Part shown: piece by piece, positions 752 through 8,026 of the stretch
Layout: each line of letters starts with the position of its first letter
Numbering within the stretch: position 1 is the first letter of the stretch
Origin: Hepatocystis sp. ex Piliocolobus tephrosceles
Taxonomy: Eukaryota; Apicomplexa; Aconoidasida; Haemosporida; Plasmodiidae
Assembly: GCA_902459845.2 (NCBI GenBank)
Contig: CABPSV020000690.1
Location: 1 to 10,454, forward strand
Reading direction: 5' to 3'
DNA: 10,454 nt
Notes under the pieces: generated by a model
Seen by the model: the letters and a program-made list of their open reading frames with translations, nothing else
The model's database searches: none
Told to the model about the DNA's origin: nothing
Position numbers and translations under genes: made by a program

Positions 752-1241
752 ATGAATGCTATTCAAACACAAAACATTAATAATTCAAGTGATATTAATA
801 CAGTTTCATACGCCAGTAGTAATAATGTAATTAAGTTTGAGGTTAATAGTGAAATGGTTAGTAATATAGCTAGTGACAATGTAGCTAATGATAGTGTAAC
901 TACCAGCAATGCAACTGACAACAATACAACTGACAACAATGCAACTGACAACAATACAACTGACAACAATACAACTGACAACAATACAACTAATGTAGAA
1001 CACACTGGTACGGTAATTACTTCCCAACATTCAAGTGAATGTAAAGATGATAAAATAAATCACAATTTTAATAAAGGAGATAAGACAGTTAAACAAGAAA
1101 ATGTACAAACAAACTATAATAATAATGATATGGCAAATAAAAGTTATAATGTAAATTCATTTACTTCTGTAAGTAATAATGCTTGTTTAAAAAAAATTAC
1201 AACAACAACAATAGCAACAACAATAGCAACAGCAACAACAA

Positions 1242-1285
<44 letters not shown>

Positions 1286-4200
1286 ACAACAGAGATAAAT
1301 GAGCTTGATAAAAAAAATGTACATAATAACACGGATAATGAAATAAACGAAGAAGAGGAACAAAAAAAAAAAAAAAAAAATAATGGTGATGATGACAATG
1401 AAATAATTAGTAAGGATATGATTAATAACATTGAACAGATAAATAATGAGAATAACAGTATTATTCATGATGGTAATAAAAAAGTTAATGCTAACTGTAT
1501 AAACAGTTTTAATGATACGAATAATGTAAAAGGTACTAACACTATGTTAAACACAAATAAAATAAGAAGCGCGAATAAAAATAGTTCCAATACAAATAGT
1601 TCTAATAAAAATAGTTCAAATAAAAATAGTTCAAATAAGGGAAATAGTAATCAGAACCATAGGATGAACCAGAACAATAGAAAAAATGAAAATAATATTA
1701 AAAATGAAAATAATATGAAAAATGAAAATAATATGAAAAATGAAAATAATATGAAAAATGAAAATAATATGAAAAATGAAAATAATTTGAAAAATGAAAA
1801 TAATAATATGAAGAGTAAGAGTAATAATATGAAGAGTAAGAGTAAACCATATGATTCCGAAACTAAAAAAAAAATGACTAATACACGAACTTATGTAAAT
1901 AATCAATATAATAATAGTAAACATTTTTACAAAAATGAAAACAGGTATGATAATTCCGATTCAAATAAACAATGGTTTAACACATATAGTAACACGAATA
2001 TAATAAATAATAAAATGTATGCACAAGAAGTACAAGCATATAAAGATGTAGATACAAGTCATTATAATTATAACTACGATATTTATAATAAATATAATAA
2101 TTATGGGAATTATAATAATAACAAATATAATAATGATTGTAATAGTAATGCATATTTAAACCAAATGTATACATACCTAAATATATACAACAGTAATTAC
2201 ACTGATTATCCATATATAAAAGAAACAACAAATAACATAAATTATCCATACTACCATAATAACGCTCCAAATAATATACTAATGAATGATTTTATAAAAG
2301 TACAGGATGTGTATGACCTAGCTAATATACAACTGAACAATAATATGCAACTAAACAATAATATGCAATTGAACAATAATATGCAATTGAACAATAATAT
2401 GCAACTAAACAATAATATGCAACTAAACAATAATATGCAACTAAACAATAATATGCAATTGAACAATAATATGCAACTAAACAATAACATACAACCCAGT
2501 AGTAGTATACAATATAATCCAAGTATATATTACAAGAATCATGAATATCTGAATGGAATGAATAATAACTATATATATAATAATAAGAATAATAATAATA
2601 TGTTATTAAATGATTATTTTAATCCTACGAAATTTGAGAATAGTATAACACATATAAAAAATGAAAAAGATATTGTTACTAGTGGTATTAACAGAACTAA
2701 AGTAAATACATATGGAAAGAATATAAAACATGAATACCATACAAATAATAACAGTGTTAATAACATGGAAAAAACTAATAAAAAACAAACAAATAAAAAA
2801 AACAAACAGGTGGACAAACAAACACATGTTGATATATTAAATAAAAAAGAAATAAAAAACGAAGGTACTGAGTTAGATACTGAAAAAGGATTAAATGTTA
2901 GACTAAATACAAACATTCACAACTTGAATGAAAAAGAAAAGGGATATAATAACGAAATAAATGCTTTGGCTGTTTCAACTATCCCATGGTCTGCTAGCAA
3001 CAATAACCATAAAGATAGTAAATTTTATACAAATTTTGGTAATAATAGTAATTATCATGGCATTAAAACTTTGGAAAATACGTTTGATGTGAATAGTTTT
3101 AAAAATTCGGTTAATTATATGTCTGTTCGTAATGTAGAAAAAAAGTTTTATCCAAACAAACAATACATTCGTATAACCGAAAATAATAATATGATGGAAA
3201 ACAAAAAAAATGTTATTCCTATGCATAAAAGCAAACAGTTTGTACATAATGCTAAGGACACTATTACTTCAACTGTTTATGGTCAAGGGGAAGAAAGAGC
3301 AAACATAAAAGGAGTATTACAGAATCAAGACCAAATTACAAAATATGGGATAAACAAAAATGGTATTTCATTGTATAAACGTAAGATGCATAATGATAAA
3401 GAATATAATATTGGTCATAATAATATGGGTCATAATAATAAGGGACATAATATGGGTCATAATAATATGGGTCATAATAATAAGGGAAATAATATGGGGC
3501 ATAATATGGGACATAATATGGGACATAATATGGGACATAATATGGAACATAATAAAGGACATAATAAAGGACATAATAAAGAACATACGAATCCAATTTT
3601 AAGCATACTTAATACAAGCGGCAAAAACCCTAACATGGAAGTTAATAAAGAAATATACAAATTTATAGATTATTGTGTTAAAAATCGTGGTAATAAATAT
3701 TTATTAGATGTATTAAACGACTTATCATATACCCCTAATGATGTTAATTCTATTACCCCTGATAATACTGTTGTCAGTACTAATAATAAAGACAGTATGG
3801 GTGACTTAAATAATATGTTTAAAATAAAAATAAGTCAAGAAAATATGAACACTATTGCGTCATTAGAAAATAATGTGGAAAATCAGACCATAGACAACAT
3901 TAAGAGTGTTACTACCACTATCAATACGGGTTCTAATATGGGTCCTAATACAGATGCGAATACAGGTTCAAATGCAGATGCGAATACAGCTCCCAATACA
4001 GGTTCAAATGCAGATGCGAATACAGCTCCCAATACAGATGCCAATACAGATGCCAATACAGATGCCAATACAGCTCCCAATACAGCTCCCAATACAGCTC
4101 CCAATGTCAGCACGAACGGTAGTATTAATACCAGTGTCAATGGAGGTATCGTTTCAAAACTAAGTTTAGACGATATAAACATGACCCTACTACATAGCGC

Positions 4201-7200
4201 TTATATAGATAATATAACAGTCGTTAAAAAATGTCTTGAAATGAATGCAGATGTAAATTATACTGATAAAGTAGGTAGAACAGCTTTACATTATGCATGT
4301 GTGGGTGAATACTATGAAATTTGTAATTTATTGATAAAACATGGAGCAGAAGTGAATATTTCTGATTTTAAACAGTGGACCCCATTACATGTTGCTGTTA
4401 CGAAAATGCATAACGAAATTACAGAATTATTATTAAAACATAATGCTAATATAAATGCCTTATTACCTCATTCGTTATCACCTAATAGAAGAAATGCTAC
4501 AGCTAGTATGAGTATACATTTTGCAGCCATAAAAGGAAACAAAGAAATAACAAAAATATTAATAAAATATGGAGCTAAAATTAATGACGTAGATATATCC
4601 AATAGAACACCATTACATTATGCTGCATATAGACCAAATTCTGATTATTTAGAATATTTAATAAAGGATGAAAAAGCAAATGTAAATGTGTTTGATATAC
4701 ATAATAGGTTACCTATACATGCAGCTTGTTTAGGTGGTGTCTTAAATAATGTAAAAATTTTAATAGAAAATAAAAGTTATTATCAAAAAAAAGATATTTA
4801 TAACATGAGTCCTTTAGATATAGCACAGATTAAAAAATTCAAGGACATTAAAAACTATTTGGAAAAATATATAAGTATTAATTATATTCCTAACCATTTG
4901 GAGGGCTTAAGTAAACCAAGTTGTGGCTTGTCAGATGAGACGAAAGTAAATGAAGAACATGCTAATACAGATAATAGTGGTCAAAAAAAAAGTGAGCATG
5001 ACTTGAATAATAAAAGTGAAGATACTAACATACAACTTAACAAAAAAGAAGCGAACAGTTTGGAGGTAATCGACGAAAAAAACTTAGATCCGAAAGAATT
5101 TTATAACGACAACCAAATGATTAAAGACATATTAATAACAACTATTAGTACAATTTTTAAAGAAAAAAATAAAGCACAAATAAAACGTGTGGTCGATGCT
5201 TTAGGTGTATACATAACTTTAAGTTTGTTAGAAAAAACTATTTTGATTCAAAAATATGGAGGGATAAATATGGTTGGTAAGACAGGAAAAAGAACTAGCG
5301 GTGGTGTTTTTTTTTATTTAATAAAATATATGTATCGAAATGATATAATATCGAAATCTAAGTATGATTATATCCTTGAAGAAGAAAAGGAGAAAAAAAA
5401 AACATATCTTAAGTTGAAAAAAAAATTATTACAAGAAGAGGAAAATAAAAAGGAGGAAAATAAAAAGGGGGAAAATAAAAAGAGGGAGAATAAAAAGGGG
5501 GAAAATAAAAAGAGGGAGAATAAAAAGGGGGAAAATAAAATAGAGAAAGACAAAAAAGAGGAAACCAAAAAAGAAGAAACCCAAAAAGAGGTAAATAAAG
5601 AGGTAAATAAAGAGGTAAACAAAGAGGTAAACAAAGAGGTAAATAAAGAGGTAAATAAAGAGGTAAACAAAGAGGCAAATAAAGAGGTAAATAAAGAGGT
5701 AAACAAAGAGGTAAACAAAGAGGTAAATAAAGAGGTAAACAAAGAGGTAAACAAAGAGGTAAACAAAGAGGTAAACAAAGAGGTAAATAAAGAGGTAAAC
5801 AAAGAGGTAAACAAAGAGGTAAACAAAGAGGTAAACAAAGAGGTAAATAAAGAGGTAAACAAAGAGGTAAATAAAGAGGTAAATGGGCTGTCTGTTGCGC
5901 GTGCTGATACATCTATTGCCATAACAAATGAACCAAATAGAAAAAATAAAATAAGTAAACTGAGTAATAAAAAGAATAAAAATAGTACAACTAATGTGAT
6001 TAATAATAGTGGTCTTAATAGTGGTCTTAATAGTGGTCTTAATAGTGGTCTTAATAGTGGTCTTAATAGGGGTCTTAGTAGTGGCAATAGCAGAGATTTC
6101 AATAAAGAACTCAACAAAAGTACTGAAATATACAATATGACTAGACGCAACTTTAACAGAGATAGTAACAATACTAATAATTCCATTTTAAAAACAAAGC
6201 AAGTTGCACAATTTAATAATAAATTATCAGGAAAAGGTAATCTAAATAATAAAGTTGTTACGAGTGAAAAAAAAACAGAGAAGAATAACAATAAAGATTA
6301 TATTAAAAACAGAATAAACACAATAAAACAGACACAGAAAAATATAAATAATATTAATAGTAATGGTTTTGCAAAAAAAATGAATGTAAAGTATGTTACA
6401 CATAACATGTTCAACAAAATTAATAACAGTAATGACAACAATAATAGTAGTAGTAGTATTGGCATTAATAAGAATGTTAATTGTAATATTGTTTCTACGG
6501 ATAAAGGACAAAAAAGAAATGAAAATAAAAATGAAAATAAAAATGAAAATAAAAATGAAAATAAAAATGAAAATAAAAATGAAAATGAAAATAAAAACGA
6601 AAATGAAAATGAAAATAAAAATAAAAATAAAAATGAAAATAAAAATGAAAATAACAATAAAAATAACAATAAAAATAACAATAAAAATAACAGTAAAAAT
6701 AACAATAAAAATAACAGTAAAAATAACAATAAAAATAACAGTAAAAATAACAATAAAAATAACAATAAAAATAACAATAAAAATAACAATAAAAATAACA
6801 ATATTGGTAGCTTATCCACTTATAATAATACAGAAAAGAATGAAAAAACATTAAACGAATATAGTAATAACATTTGTTTGAAAAAATATAATTATATTTT
6901 AAAAAACAATAAGGATGGTAAAAATGTACCACCTTATTATAAAAACAATAAATCAGATGATATAGCTCTAAAAAAAAAAAAAAATAACAATAACTTTGTG
7001 AATAGTAAAAAATTATCTGTTTCGAATGATTCCACTAAAAATATAACCAAATATAAACAAAAGAATAAACATTTCAATAGTAGTAATGTAGTTGTTGATA
7101 GGAGCAATAACGACGAAAACACAGACAGCGTTATTAATAATAAAATATTTACTAATAACGTCAAGAATAAAAGTGTTGAAAACGGAGCAAATAATAGTGC

Positions 7201-8026
7201 TAACAACAAAGGGCAAGAAAAAAAAAAAAAAAAAAATAATTTAAATTTAAATTTAATTAACAAAATGAATAATACCAATTGTATCGAAAAAATAAATAGG
7301 GAACAAACTTATGTTAATATAATGCAAAATCAACATGATAATTATAAAAATTTGTCAATAACACAAAATAAAAAAAAAAAAATGTCCAAGTTTAATAACA
7401 GTGGATATGCAACTTCCAGCTATAAAAATATTACTAATATGAACAACGTGAACCAAACAAACGGAATCACTCAAGTAAGTCAAATGACCCAACTGAACCA
7501 TATGAACAAACCAAACTATATAAACCAACTAAACCAGATGAGTCAACTAAACCAGATGAATCAGTTAAACCTGGCGAATCAGTTAAACCAGATGAATCAG
7601 TTAAACCAGATGAATCAGTTAAACTATATGAACCTACCTAACTATATGAACCAACAAAATTATATGAACCAACCAAATTATATGAACCAACCAAATTATA
7701 TGAACCAACCAAATTATATGAATCAACCAAATTATATGAATCAACCAAACCGTATGAACCAGCCAAACCGTATGAACCAATTGAATAACATCAATCGTAT
7801 TAACGAACAGATGGTGAATTACAAAGCTAATTTAATTCCTTCATACATAAATAATTTTCAAAACAATGAGTATGACTATATGGTAGGTGAAAAAAACTAC
7901 AACTGTTTAAATAATCAGAATATATATCCATTAAATAGTTTAAGTAAAGTTCATGCGAATAATAATCCACAAATTCTTTTAAATAATTTGAACTATTCAT
8001 ATTATAATAATAATCAACAAAATTAA
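752..8026 (+). CDS. Giant Asn-rich ankyrin-repeat protein with PHAX-type RNA-binding domain
   Basis: Single open frame of 2424 codons, no intron needed. The ATG at 752 is the first possible start: an in-frame TAA lies at 743-745, and the context (A at -3, A-rich leader) suits Plasmodium. Domain order: disordered N-terminal half (1-1143) with a Tyr/Asn-rich stretch (about 438-502), a His-rich array (888-945) and a short ordered-looking segment (948-993); seven ankyrin repeats (about 1144-1374); acidic/polar linker (1375-1445); PHAX-type RNA-binding domain (about 1446-1542); Lys/Glu-rich, probably helical repeats (about 1543-1711); Asn/Lys- and Asn/Gln-rich C-terminus. No signal peptide or membrane segment seen. 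Known: PHAX domains bind RNA and metazoan PHAX carries snRNA to CRM1; ankyrin repeats bind proteins. Inferred: a nuclear or shuttling RNA adaptor. The gene stands alone in the window. The ankyrin call is near certain, the PHAX call strong, the cellular role unproven. Confidence 0.95.
911..985 (+). repeat. 15-bp tandem array encoding (A/T)TDNN, five units
   Basis: Five units of (A/G)CAACTGACAACAAT encode ATDNN or TTDNN at residues 54-78. Units differ only at the first base (G or A), giving Ala/Thr alternation in the first three units and Thr afterwards. The near identity suggests recent in-frame slippage. Confidence 0.95.
1199..1291 (+). repeat. ACA/GCA trinucleotide tract encoding poly-Thr/Ala
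   Basis: Residues 150-180 are almost all Thr (ACA) and Ala (GCA) with three ATA (Ile) interruptions. It is a trinucleotide microsatellite in the coding frame. Read one base later, the same DNA would give poly-Gln and two bases later poly-Asn, so the Thr frame is notable in an otherwise Asn-dominated protein. Confidence 0.95.
1682..1843 (+). repeat. 18-bp KNENN(M/I/L) array followed by KSKSNNM units
   Basis: Six full 18-bp units and a seventh partial one (1682-1804) encode KNENN followed by Ile, Met or Leu, from residue 311. It runs into a 21-bp unit AAGAGTAAGAGTAATAATATG present about one and a half times (1811-1843, KSKSNNM). A weaker related Asn-Ser-Lys array (KNSSN units, about 1576-1640) lies just upstream. 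The composition is strongly charged and hydrophilic, probably disordered. Confidence 0.9.
2063..2260 (+). other. Tyr/Asn-rich segment
   Basis: Residues about 438-503 are almost all Tyr and Asn with a few Asp, Lys and Gly (for example YNYNYDIYNKYNNYGNYNNN). It is not a clean tandem array. Such Tyr/Asn-rich sequence resembles the prion-like domains of RNA-binding proteins that form condensates, which would fit a protein with an RNA-binding domain; this is inference from composition only. Confidence 0.75.
2327..2488 (+). repeat. 18-bp tandem array encoding MQLNNN, nine units
   Basis: Nine units of the type ATGCAACTAAACAATAAT encode (M/I)QLNNN at residues 526-579, followed by two degenerate units (IQPSSS, IQYNPS) to about residue 591. 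Units differ by synonymous Leu codons (CTA, TTG, CTG) in a patchy order, consistent with block duplication rather than single-unit expansion. Confidence 0.95.
3413..3586 (+). repeat. His-rich GHN(N)(M/K) array
   Basis: Residues 888-945: mixed 15-bp (GHNNM, GHNNK) and 12-bp (GHNM, GHNK) units, beginning with the longer form and ending with the shorter. Variants are GNNM and EHN(M/K). There are 13 His in 58 residues at spacings of four or five. The unit change is gain or loss of one AAT codon. Regularly spaced His could bind metal ions, as in Plasmodium His-rich proteins; not demonstrable here. Confidence 0.95.
3593..3730 (+). other. Short ordered-looking segment N-terminal to the ankyrin repeats
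   Basis: Residues about 948-993, between the His-rich array and the next Asn-rich region. It starts NPILSILNTSG, then has the amphipathic run EIYKFIDYCVKNRGNKYLLD followed by VLNDLSY, with spaced hydrophobics suited to two short helices. It is one of few N-terminal parts with mixed composition and no tandem repetition. I do not recognise a family. It could be a conserved binding helix pair; comparison with orthologues would decide. Confidence 0.5.
3923..4105 (+). repeat. 12-bp array encoding NTDA/NTAP/NTGS/NADA
   Basis: Residues 1058-1118, ending some 25 residues before the ankyrin repeats. Tetrapeptide units N-T/A-D/A/G-A/P/S occur in a mosaic: a larger block (NTGSNADANTAP, 36 bp) occurs twice, then NTDA three times more and NTAP three times. 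It is richer in G+C than the other arrays because of Ala, Pro and Gly codons. Probably a flexible spacer. Confidence 0.92.
4181..4873 (+). other. Ankyrin-repeat domain, seven repeats
   Basis: Residues about 1144-1374. Repeat starts are near residues 1144 (MTLLHSA), 1175 (GRTALHYAC), 1208 (QWTPLHVAV), 1251 (ASMSIHFAA), 1284 (NRTPLHYAA), 1318 (NRLPIHAAC) and 1351 (NMSPLDIAQ). Most are about 33 residues long and show the family's TPLHxAA turn-helix motif, a second helix such as EITELLLKHNANIN, and the Gly/Ala-Asn-Val-Asn loop. The first and last are degenerate, as expected of capping repeats. Repeat 3 carries about ten extra residues before repeat 4 (around 1232-1250). Ankyrin stacks are protein-binding scaffolds; the partner cannot be deduced here. 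This part is free of Asn runs, showing selection against the low-complexity expansion seen elsewhere in the protein. Confidence 0.95.
5087..5377 (+). other. PHAX-type RNA-binding domain
   Basis: Residues about 1446-1542. Recognised from memory of the PHAX RNA-binding family (phosphorylated adaptor for RNA export): a helix ending in IKRVVDALG (1477-1485), then LLEKTILIQKYGG (to G1503-G1504), then TGKRTSGGVFFYLIK (1511-1525) and a final helix to about 1542. In animal PHAX the corresponding pieces are a conserved RVV..G helix, a helix leading to a Gly-Gly, and an Arg-rich loop running into TPGGVF. The Gly-Gly pairs, the basic loop (K1510, K1513, R1514) and the VFF core are kept; the usual Pro is Ser1516. 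The family binds single-stranded or structured RNA without strong sequence preference and acts in snRNA/snoRNA export in metazoa. No cap-binding-complex or CRM1 contact motif could be identified here. A profile search was not possible. Confidence 0.85.
5441..5539 (+). repeat. 15-bp array encoding ENKK(G/R/E)
   Basis: Six 15-bp units plus a partial one directly after the PHAX-type domain, from residue 1564. The last residue alternates Gly and Arg, and the two-unit 30-bp blocks 5471-5500 and 5501-5530 are identical, so the current repeat unit of duplication was 30 bp. It is highly charged and probably extends the preceding Lys/Glu helix. Confidence 0.93.
5588..5884 (+). repeat. 12-bp array encoding EVNK, 25 units
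   Basis: 297 bp: 24 full GAGGTAAA(T/C)AAA units plus a final nine bases. Only one unit changes the protein (unit 8, GAGGCA, EANK); otherwise only the Asn codon varies (AAT or AAC). Because the unit is a multiple of three without stops in most frames, long spurious open frames appear on the opposite strand. The four-residue charge pattern (Glu to Lys) would suit a helix with i to i+3/i+4 salt bridges, though Val and Asn every four residues weaken that. Confidence 0.97.
6008..6079 (+). repeat. 12-bp array encoding SGLN, six units
   Basis: Five exact AGTGGTCTTAAT units (SGLN) then one variant (RGLS), from residue 1753. The five are identical in DNA, so the expansion is recent. No function evident. 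Confidence 0.95.
6518..6802 (+). repeat. 12-bp NENK array grading into NNNK/NNSK
   Basis: Residues 1923-2017. The first half is NENK with irregular NE or NK inserts (6-bp changes); the second half is NNNK and NNSK. Within the second half NNSK and NNNK alternate three times, a 24-bp higher-order period, then plain NNNK follows. The shift from Glu to Asn or Ser removes the negative charge, so the array goes from mixed-charge to basic along its length. Confidence 0.95.
7484..7807 (+). repeat. 18-bp array encoding MNQLNQ / MNQPNY, about 18 units
   Basis: Residues 2245-2352. Early units are MNQLNQ-like; later ones are MNQPNY (four, differing only by one synonymous base) and MNQPNR (two); the edges are degenerate (MTQLNH, INRINE). 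It is Asn/Gln-rich with regular Met and Tyr, hence prion-like in composition. It shares the 18-bp length and the Met-Gln-Leu-Asn character of the array at 2327-2488 but not its phase exactly. Confidence 0.95.

What the first reader, a model, noticed from the sequence alone, without database searches (positions are those of the whole stretch)
4181..5377. Ankyrin repeats joined to a PHAX-type RNA-binding domain
Seven ankyrin repeats are followed 70 residues later by a domain with the PHAX signature (RVV..LG helix, Gly-Gly, basic loop, GGVFFYLIK). Animal PHAX, as I know it, has no ankyrin repeats: it uses short linear motifs to reach the cap-binding complex and CRM1. Here the partner-binding surface may have been supplied by an ankyrin stack, suggesting a parasite-specific RNA adaptor for snRNA, snoRNA or other RNA traffic. 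I cannot tell whether this architecture is already catalogued.
Basis: partly seen in the sequence, partly recalled or inferred. Interest (0 to 1): 0.75.

Follow-up and report, generated by a model that had tools for sequence, protein, structure and literature searches.

The report
Ankyrin-PHAX RNA-binding protein of apicomplexan parasites
A malaria-parasite protein really does join ankyrin repeats to a PHAX-type RNA-binding domain; this pairing is already recorded in databases and in print and is shared by relatives in three parasite genera, but what it does is still unknown.

Summary
One 2424-residue frame (752-8026, +) holds seven ankyrin repeats (4181-4867) and a PHAX RNA-binding domain (PF10258, E 7.7e-16, 5138-5392). 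It is not new: database relatives are named "PHAX domain-containing protein", a 2013 table lists "Ankyrin repeat region, PHAX RNA-binding domain" for P. falciparum PF3D7_1021900, and PDB 2w4s, "Ankyrin-repeat protein", is this domain, apparently from Cryptosporidium. I extend it: 16 of 16 listed PF10258 homologues (Plasmodium, Babesia, Cryptosporidium) also have ankyrins. With the window, 17 of 17 share a repeat-3/4 insertion and a short upstream motif (window 3638-3745) without a Pfam match. So this is one inherited three-part unit, not a chance fusion. The human cap-binding-complex tryptophan helix is not recognisable. Published tables and passages list PF3D7_1021900 among mRNA-bound and RUF6-RNA-associated proteins. 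Best reading: an apicomplexan RNA adaptor whose ankyrin stack binds a conserved, unknown partner; snRNA export is unsupported, not excluded. In passing: PHAX domains occur in Chloroflexota and phage-like contigs.

The parts
752..8026 (+). single-exon reading frame, 2424 aa, about 278 kDa; mostly Asn-rich low-complexity sequence around three conserved blocks
   Evidence: 2022 residues lie outside the conserved blocks, 27% of them Asn
3638..3745 (+). conserved block upstream of the ankyrins (residues 963-998) with the motif N.[ES]I[YH].F[IV]..C (residues 965-975); the same region is predicted helical in a Cryptosporidium relative
   Evidence: motif in 17 of 17 ANK-PHAX proteins, 0 of 34000 whole-protein shuffles, 0 of 224 other fetched proteins; helices 27-45 and 49-57, block means 75, 75 and 54, in the P0126 model
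4181..4867 (+). seven ankyrin repeats (residues 1144-1372)
   Evidence: Pfam Ank 1.6e-35; model pLDDT mostly above 90; the 50 Foldseek rows shown are ankyrin-repeat chains
4460..4507 (+). insertion between ankyrin repeats 3 and 4 (residues 1237-1252), predicted to end in two short strands
   Evidence: signature in 17 of 17 relatives, 0 of 224 other fetched ankyrin proteins; strands in both models
4868..5086 (+). variable linker, predicted disordered; nearly absent in Babesia P0106
5138..5392 (+). PHAX RNA-binding domain (PF10258)
   Evidence: 58.3 bits, E 7.7e-16; matches PDB 2w4s E 5e-12 and human PHAX 2xc7 E 5.4e-5
5393..5476 (+). conserved basic helix continuing from the PHAX domain (residues 1548-1575)
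   Evidence: alignments; one long helix in the model, with falling confidence

Best explanation
The gene encodes the apicomplexan ANK-PHAX protein, very probably the counterpart of P. falciparum PF3D7_1021900 ('10b antigen', PHAX domain-containing protein). Mechanism: the PHAX domain holds RNA through its Gly-Gly and basic loop; the ankyrin stack, with its own insertion, binds a protein partner conserved across these parasites; the upstream Ile-(Tyr/His)-x-Phe...Cys helix is a second docking site. The protein so tethers RNA to a ribonucleoprotein or transport partner. Shown here: the domains and their conservation as one unit. Shown by others, as printed: association with mRNA, with GBP2 and with RUF6 RNA. 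Inferred: that the ankyrins and the helix bind partners, and that the job is adapting RNA to something other than the animal cap-binding/CRM1 assembly.
For: Domains. Homologues with both domains in three genera. The ankyrins are at least as conserved as PHAX between the window and Cryptosporidium (40-42% against 26-32%) and Babesia (38-39% against 34%), as expected if the stack has a specific ligand. Shared insertion and upstream motif, 17 of 17 each. Seven PHAX residues, both GG pairs among them, are invariant in 17 parasite proteins, human PHAX and 2w4s. RNA association, as printed: PF3D7_1021900 in the mRNA-bound proteome table (PMC4933991); PBANKA_0506100 with GBP2 (PMC8479154); RUF6 ChIRP-MS and DDX5 IP (PMC9670795). 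No recognisable CBP80-binding tryptophan helix.
Against: No partner of the ankyrins is identified. None of the passages I read measures RNA binding by this domain. The tryptophan helix or an export signal could have diverged beyond recognition; in the motif register two Babesia and two Cryptosporidium rows do score near the top against the human helix. That the window is PF3D7_1021900 itself is not shown: the printed peptide for that gene (PMC5071865) is not in the window and the masses differ (278 against 267.4 kDa). The 2013 paper groups the protein under 'cell surface & PVM'.
Confidence: 0.6

Rival explanations
1. It is the parasite's working PHAX: an snRNA exporter that still bridges the nuclear cap-binding complex and CRM1 through diverged short motifs, the ankyrins being an add-on.
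For: Pfam PHAX domain; sole PF10258 match in the 12.4 Mb held of the genome; a review passage says CRM1 homologues are present in apicomplexan genomes (PMC5785795); two Babesia and two Cryptosporidium rows score near the top against the human helix in the motif register.
Against: No conserved tryptophan upstream of the ankyrins: 9 of 17 proteins have none there, and the window's two are in 0 of 10 other Plasmodium-like rows, though P0002 and P0003 share theirs with each other, and P0106 and P0122 have one within 35 residues of the motif. The motif's profile does not list human PHAX in PDB and Plasmodium rows score ordinarily. Searches for CBP80, CRM1, ARS2 and SMN families in the partial genome found nothing but rang in no control, so they say nothing.
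Confidence: 0.2
2. It acts mainly in cytoplasmic mRNA storage and translation control with GBP2, DOZI, CITH and Alba proteins.
For: Listed with these proteins in the GBP2 immunoprecipitation (PMC8479154); mRNA-bound proteome.
Against: Also named with RUF6 RNA, DDX5 and var promoters, which suggests nuclear presence; the GBP2 link may be bridged by RNA.
Confidence: 0.15
3. It is a surface or exported antigen; the domains are incidental.
For: The name '10b antigen', a printed yeast two-hybrid remark about PfEMP1 and the grouping 'cell surface & PVM' (PMC3640944); antibody reactivity (PMC11464252).
Against: RNA capture and RNA-protein precipitations; the 2024 paper itself calls it a nucleoprotein; the unit is conserved in Cryptosporidium, which has no PfEMP1 (recalled).
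Confidence: 0.04
4. The pairing is a gene-model or assembly artefact.
For: P0106 of Babesia sp. Xinjiang looks over-fused, with PhoD phosphatase stretches.
Against: One open frame in the window and the same pair in 16 of 16 listed relatives of three genera.
Confidence: 0.01

Closest known systems
Plasmodium PHAX domain-containing protein / '10b antigen' (PF3D7_1021900; PBANKA_0506100)
   Same: ankyrin repeats plus PHAX domain in a very large protein
   Different: the window is not shown to be the 3D7 copy: a printed peptide of that gene is absent from the window and the mass differs
Cryptosporidium ankyrin-repeat protein (P0125-P0127; PDB 2w4s for its PHAX domain)
   Same: upstream motif, ankyrins with the same insertion and PHAX domain in the same order
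   Different: only 478-499 residues; lacks the long low-complexity stretches
Animal PHAX (human 2xc7, 8pnt, 9hfl)
   Same: RNA-binding domain with both GG pairs; 22 of 68 aligned residues identical to the window
   Different: 394-residue human chain; its cap-binding-complex tryptophan helix is not recognisable in the parasite proteins; that it lacks ankyrins is recalled
Chloroflexota PHAX-domain proteins
   Same: PF10258 in 43 of 43 scanned
   Different: no ankyrin family among their Pfam matches; 5 with RRM and 5 with cold-shock domains

Membership tests
Apicomplexan ANK-PHAX protein | PHAX domain and ankyrin repeats in one protein | tested here: met
   16 of 16 listed PF10258 homologues alike
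Apicomplexan ANK-PHAX protein | insertion between ankyrin repeats 3 and 4 | tested here: met
   17 of 17; 0 of 224 others; pattern drawn from these same sequences
Apicomplexan ANK-PHAX protein | upstream N.[ES]I[YH].F[IV]..C motif | tested here: met
   17 of 17; 0 of 34000 shuffles; 0 of 224 others; pattern drawn from these same sequences
PHAX snRNA export adaptor | PHAX RNA-binding domain | tested here: met
PHAX snRNA export adaptor | tryptophan helix binding CBP80 | tested here: not met
   no conserved Trp upstream of the ankyrins; profile of the upstream motif does not list human PHAX; Plasmodium rows score ordinarily against the human helix. A diverged version is not excluded.
PHAX snRNA export adaptor | CRM1 export signal | not tested
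   hydrophobic spacing looked at by eye only
PHAX snRNA export adaptor | CK2-phosphorylated acidic serine cluster | not tested
   no scan made; low-complexity sequence would make it uninformative
PHAX snRNA export adaptor | binds and exports snRNA | not testable with these tools
   needs CLIP and RNA localisation

The most novel reading that the evidence does not exclude
Apicomplexa carry a rewired kind of PHAX: the animal cap-binding/CRM1 docking helix is gone, and a three-part unit (upstream Cys-ended helix, ankyrin stack with a private insertion, PHAX domain), kept since before Cryptosporidium and Plasmodium parted, links RNA, including mRNA and the RUF6 transcripts tied to var genes, to a parasite-specific transport or chromatin partner, in organisms reported to lack the usual mRNA export receptor.
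Probability: 0.25. Interest if true: 0.65.

Novelty: already known. Interest (0 to 1): 0.38.

Why it matters
RNA export in these parasites is poorly mapped; [quoted passage not shown] A conserved RNA adaptor with a defined partner-binding stack would be a direct handle on it, and the 495-residue Cryptosporidium version is small enough for pull-downs and structure work. The wider occurrence of the PHAX RNA-binding domain seen here (parasites, Chloroflexota, phage-like contigs) sits badly with the printed view of PHAX as an animal innovation (passages, PMC3032688), at least for that domain.

Tried and rejected
PHAX-only homologue search with the 399-residue piece: 90 candidates, none at E 0.001; its length window and exact-word step limit it. 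Human tryptophan helix, ungapped, against all 17 proteins: in the motif register the number of positions scoring as well or better is 3 of 768 (P0122), 7 of 767 (P0123), 9 of 475 (P0125), 7 of 471 (P0126), 43 of 454 (P0127), 835 of 1643 (P0106) and 336 to 750 of 1611 to 2400 in the 11 Plasmodium-like rows; so relatedness is unsupported, though not excluded for Babesia and Cryptosporidium. The best-scoring place of that helix lies at or near the start of the PHAX domain in 15 of 17 proteins (up to score 32), which I take as two similar amphipathic helices; not followed up. Profile of the motif against PDB: two weak CHAT-protein hits, E 0.12 and 0.69, taken as chance. Partner families PF09088, PF08767, PF04959, PF06003 in the partial genome: nothing, and nothing in the controls, so uninformative. 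Foldseek of the ANK+PHAX model: the 50 rows shown of 1228 are ankyrin-type chains; the PHAX part was not overlaid separately. First bacterial-genome scan with the parasite PHAX alignment: 62 pattern matches, no relative. Rfam and tRNA scans of the window: 0 hits. NCBIfam matches of the parasite proteins are generic ankyrin models far below their cut-offs. Toxoplasma and other coccidia: no row seen, but the visible lists do not let me call them absent. Two papers opened for the search terms were off the subject: PMC10449492 (a plasmid called pHAX) and PMC11122601 (2w4s only named in a figure legend).

A weakness to state: both productive homologue lists were drawn with queries that contain ankyrins, so PHAX proteins without ankyrins in these parasites would not rank; only the best 120 of 774 and 120 of 844 hits were visible.

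Full report
Observation. The stretch lies in one frame of 2424 codons, 752-8026 on +. Seven repeats can be read in register. The PHAX domain matches solved chains: 2w4s, titled 'Ankyrin-repeat protein' (E 5e-12), and human PHAX 2xc7 (E 5.4e-5). AlphaFold2 on the window's unit with five relatives gives seven ankyrin helix pairs mostly above pLDDT 90, a disordered linker, and a helical PHAX domain with block means mostly 70-84, dipping to 47-54 in the GG loop region.

Already catalogued. Homologues are named PHAX domain-containing protein, phosphorylated adapter RNA export protein or ankyrin-repeat protein by several of their sources. PMC3640944 (passages read) lists PF3D7_1021900 as '10b antigen' with 'Ankyrin repeat region, PHAX RNA-binding domain', 267.4 kDa. 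That the window is this gene or a close counterpart is inference: the window protein is 277.9 kDa and the peptide printed for the gene in PMC5071865 (passage read) is not in it. 2w4s aligns to residues 383-491 of the Cryptosporidium ryanae protein with E 1.5e-48 and 67 of 92 residues are identical; its own species name is recalled, not printed by a call.

Distribution. Of 240 rows shown (120 of 774 hits, 120 of 844), 16 carry PF10258, and 16 of 16 also carry ankyrins: nine named Plasmodium rows, P0014 (unnamed, Plasmodium-like), three Babesia and three Cryptosporidium. The queries contained ankyrins, so this does not exclude PHAX proteins without them. The held 12.4 Mb of the window's genome has one PF10258 match, the window itself; malaria genomes are larger (recalled), so the assembly is probably incomplete.

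One inherited unit. With the window there are 17 proteins (11 Plasmodium-like, 3 Babesia, 3 Cryptosporidium; not independent). Window-to-Cryptosporidium identity is 40-42% in the ankyrins and 26-32% in PHAX; to Babesia 38-39% and 34%. An insertion between repeats 3 and 4 is in 17 of 17 and in 0 of 224 other fetched ankyrin proteins. A motif N.[ES]I[YH].F[IV]..C stands 67 to 233 residues upstream of the ankyrins in 17 of 17, in 0 of 34000 whole-protein shuffles and 0 of 224 others. Both patterns were drawn from these sequences, so 17 of 17 is partly by construction; the controls and the constant order are the evidence. Pfam names nothing there. In a model of the whole C. ryanae protein the motif forms helices 27-45 and 49-57 (block means 75, 75, 54) amid disorder.

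Relation to animal PHAX. PMC12350170 (passages read) shows human PHAX residues 112-162, with W118 in CBP80 and an export signal in CRM1, as the bridging part, the RNA-binding domain being invisible. The parasite proteins have no conserved Trp upstream of the ankyrins: 9 of 17 have none. The upstream motif's profile does not list human PHAX. Ungapped scores against the human helix are ordinary for the 11 Plasmodium-like rows and P0106, but near the top for P0122, P0123, P0125 and P0126, so a very diverged relation is not excluded. Seven residues (E1471, R1479, G1485, both GG pairs) are invariant in all 17 plus human and 2w4s. So the RNA-binding domain is PHAX; the known docking helix is not recognisable.

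Function. PMC4933991 (passage) lists PF3D7_1021900 in its table of experimentally identified RNA-binding proteins, with domain RNA_GG_bind. PMC8479154 (passages) reports PBANKA_0506100, a PHAX domain protein, with GBP2; that it is the same gene is inference from name and domain. PMC9670795 (outline and passage) names PF3D7_1021900 among three proteins shared by RUF6 ChIRP-MS, DDX5 IP and var promoter proteomics. PMC11464252 (passage) calls it a nucleoprotein. These support an RNA-associated role and do not show export; PMC8479154 itself found no exportin in its precipitates.

Literature reach. Ten searches of the open-licence library listed no title devoted to this protein. I did not search for the upstream motif in print.

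Side result. PHAX domains also occur in three IMG/VR contigs (the same three again) and 45 GTDB loci, 43 of them titled as groups I take to be Chloroflexota. 43 of the 45 were scanned (L030 and L041, frames cut by the record end, were left out): 43 of 43 have PF10258, five also RRM, five cold-shock, none an ankyrin family. This stands against the printed view that PHAX is animal-specific (passages of PMC3032688), at least for the domain.

Verdict. Real, conserved and already catalogued; the added value is the three-part conserved unit and the unrecognisable human docking helix. The likeliest mechanism is an RNA adaptor with an ankyrin partner-binding stack; the partner is unknown.

Noticed in passing
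L005-L049 (GTDB genome loci): PHAX RNA-binding domains in bacteria: 45 loci, 43 titled as Chloroflexota groups plus one Myxococcales and one Nitrosomonas MAG; 43 of 43 scanned carry PF10258, 5 with RRM, 5 with cold-shock domains; a C-terminal region recurs that has no Pfam match in L006.
   Followed up: partly
L004:4893-5696 and 6142-7752: A 69.8 kb viral contig encodes a PHAX-domain protein and, downstream on the same strand, a Ro60-like TROVE/vWA protein; TROVE was found in 2 of 6 genomes or records searched, one of them this contig itself.
   Followed up: partly
L002:4953-5480; L003:4947-5393: Two more viral contigs with PHAX-domain proteins; in L003 downstream of a DnaB helicase gene.
   Followed up: partly
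window 5438-5883, 6524-6803, 7484-7780: Long tandem arrays with 12-, 15-, 18- and 36-base units inside the frame (for example 24.9 copies of a 12-mer at 5585-5883, 95% matches), coding low-complexity repeats.
   Followed up: no
P0106 (Babesia sp. Xinjiang): The annotated protein is ANK-PHAX followed by two PhoD phosphatase stretches; the two other Babesia proteins end soon after PHAX, so this is probably a fused gene model.
   Followed up: no
start of the PHAX domain in ANK-PHAX proteins: The human PHAX cap-binding-complex helix scores best at or near the start of the PHAX domain in 15 of 17 proteins; similar helices or an old internal duplication, unresolved.
   Followed up: no
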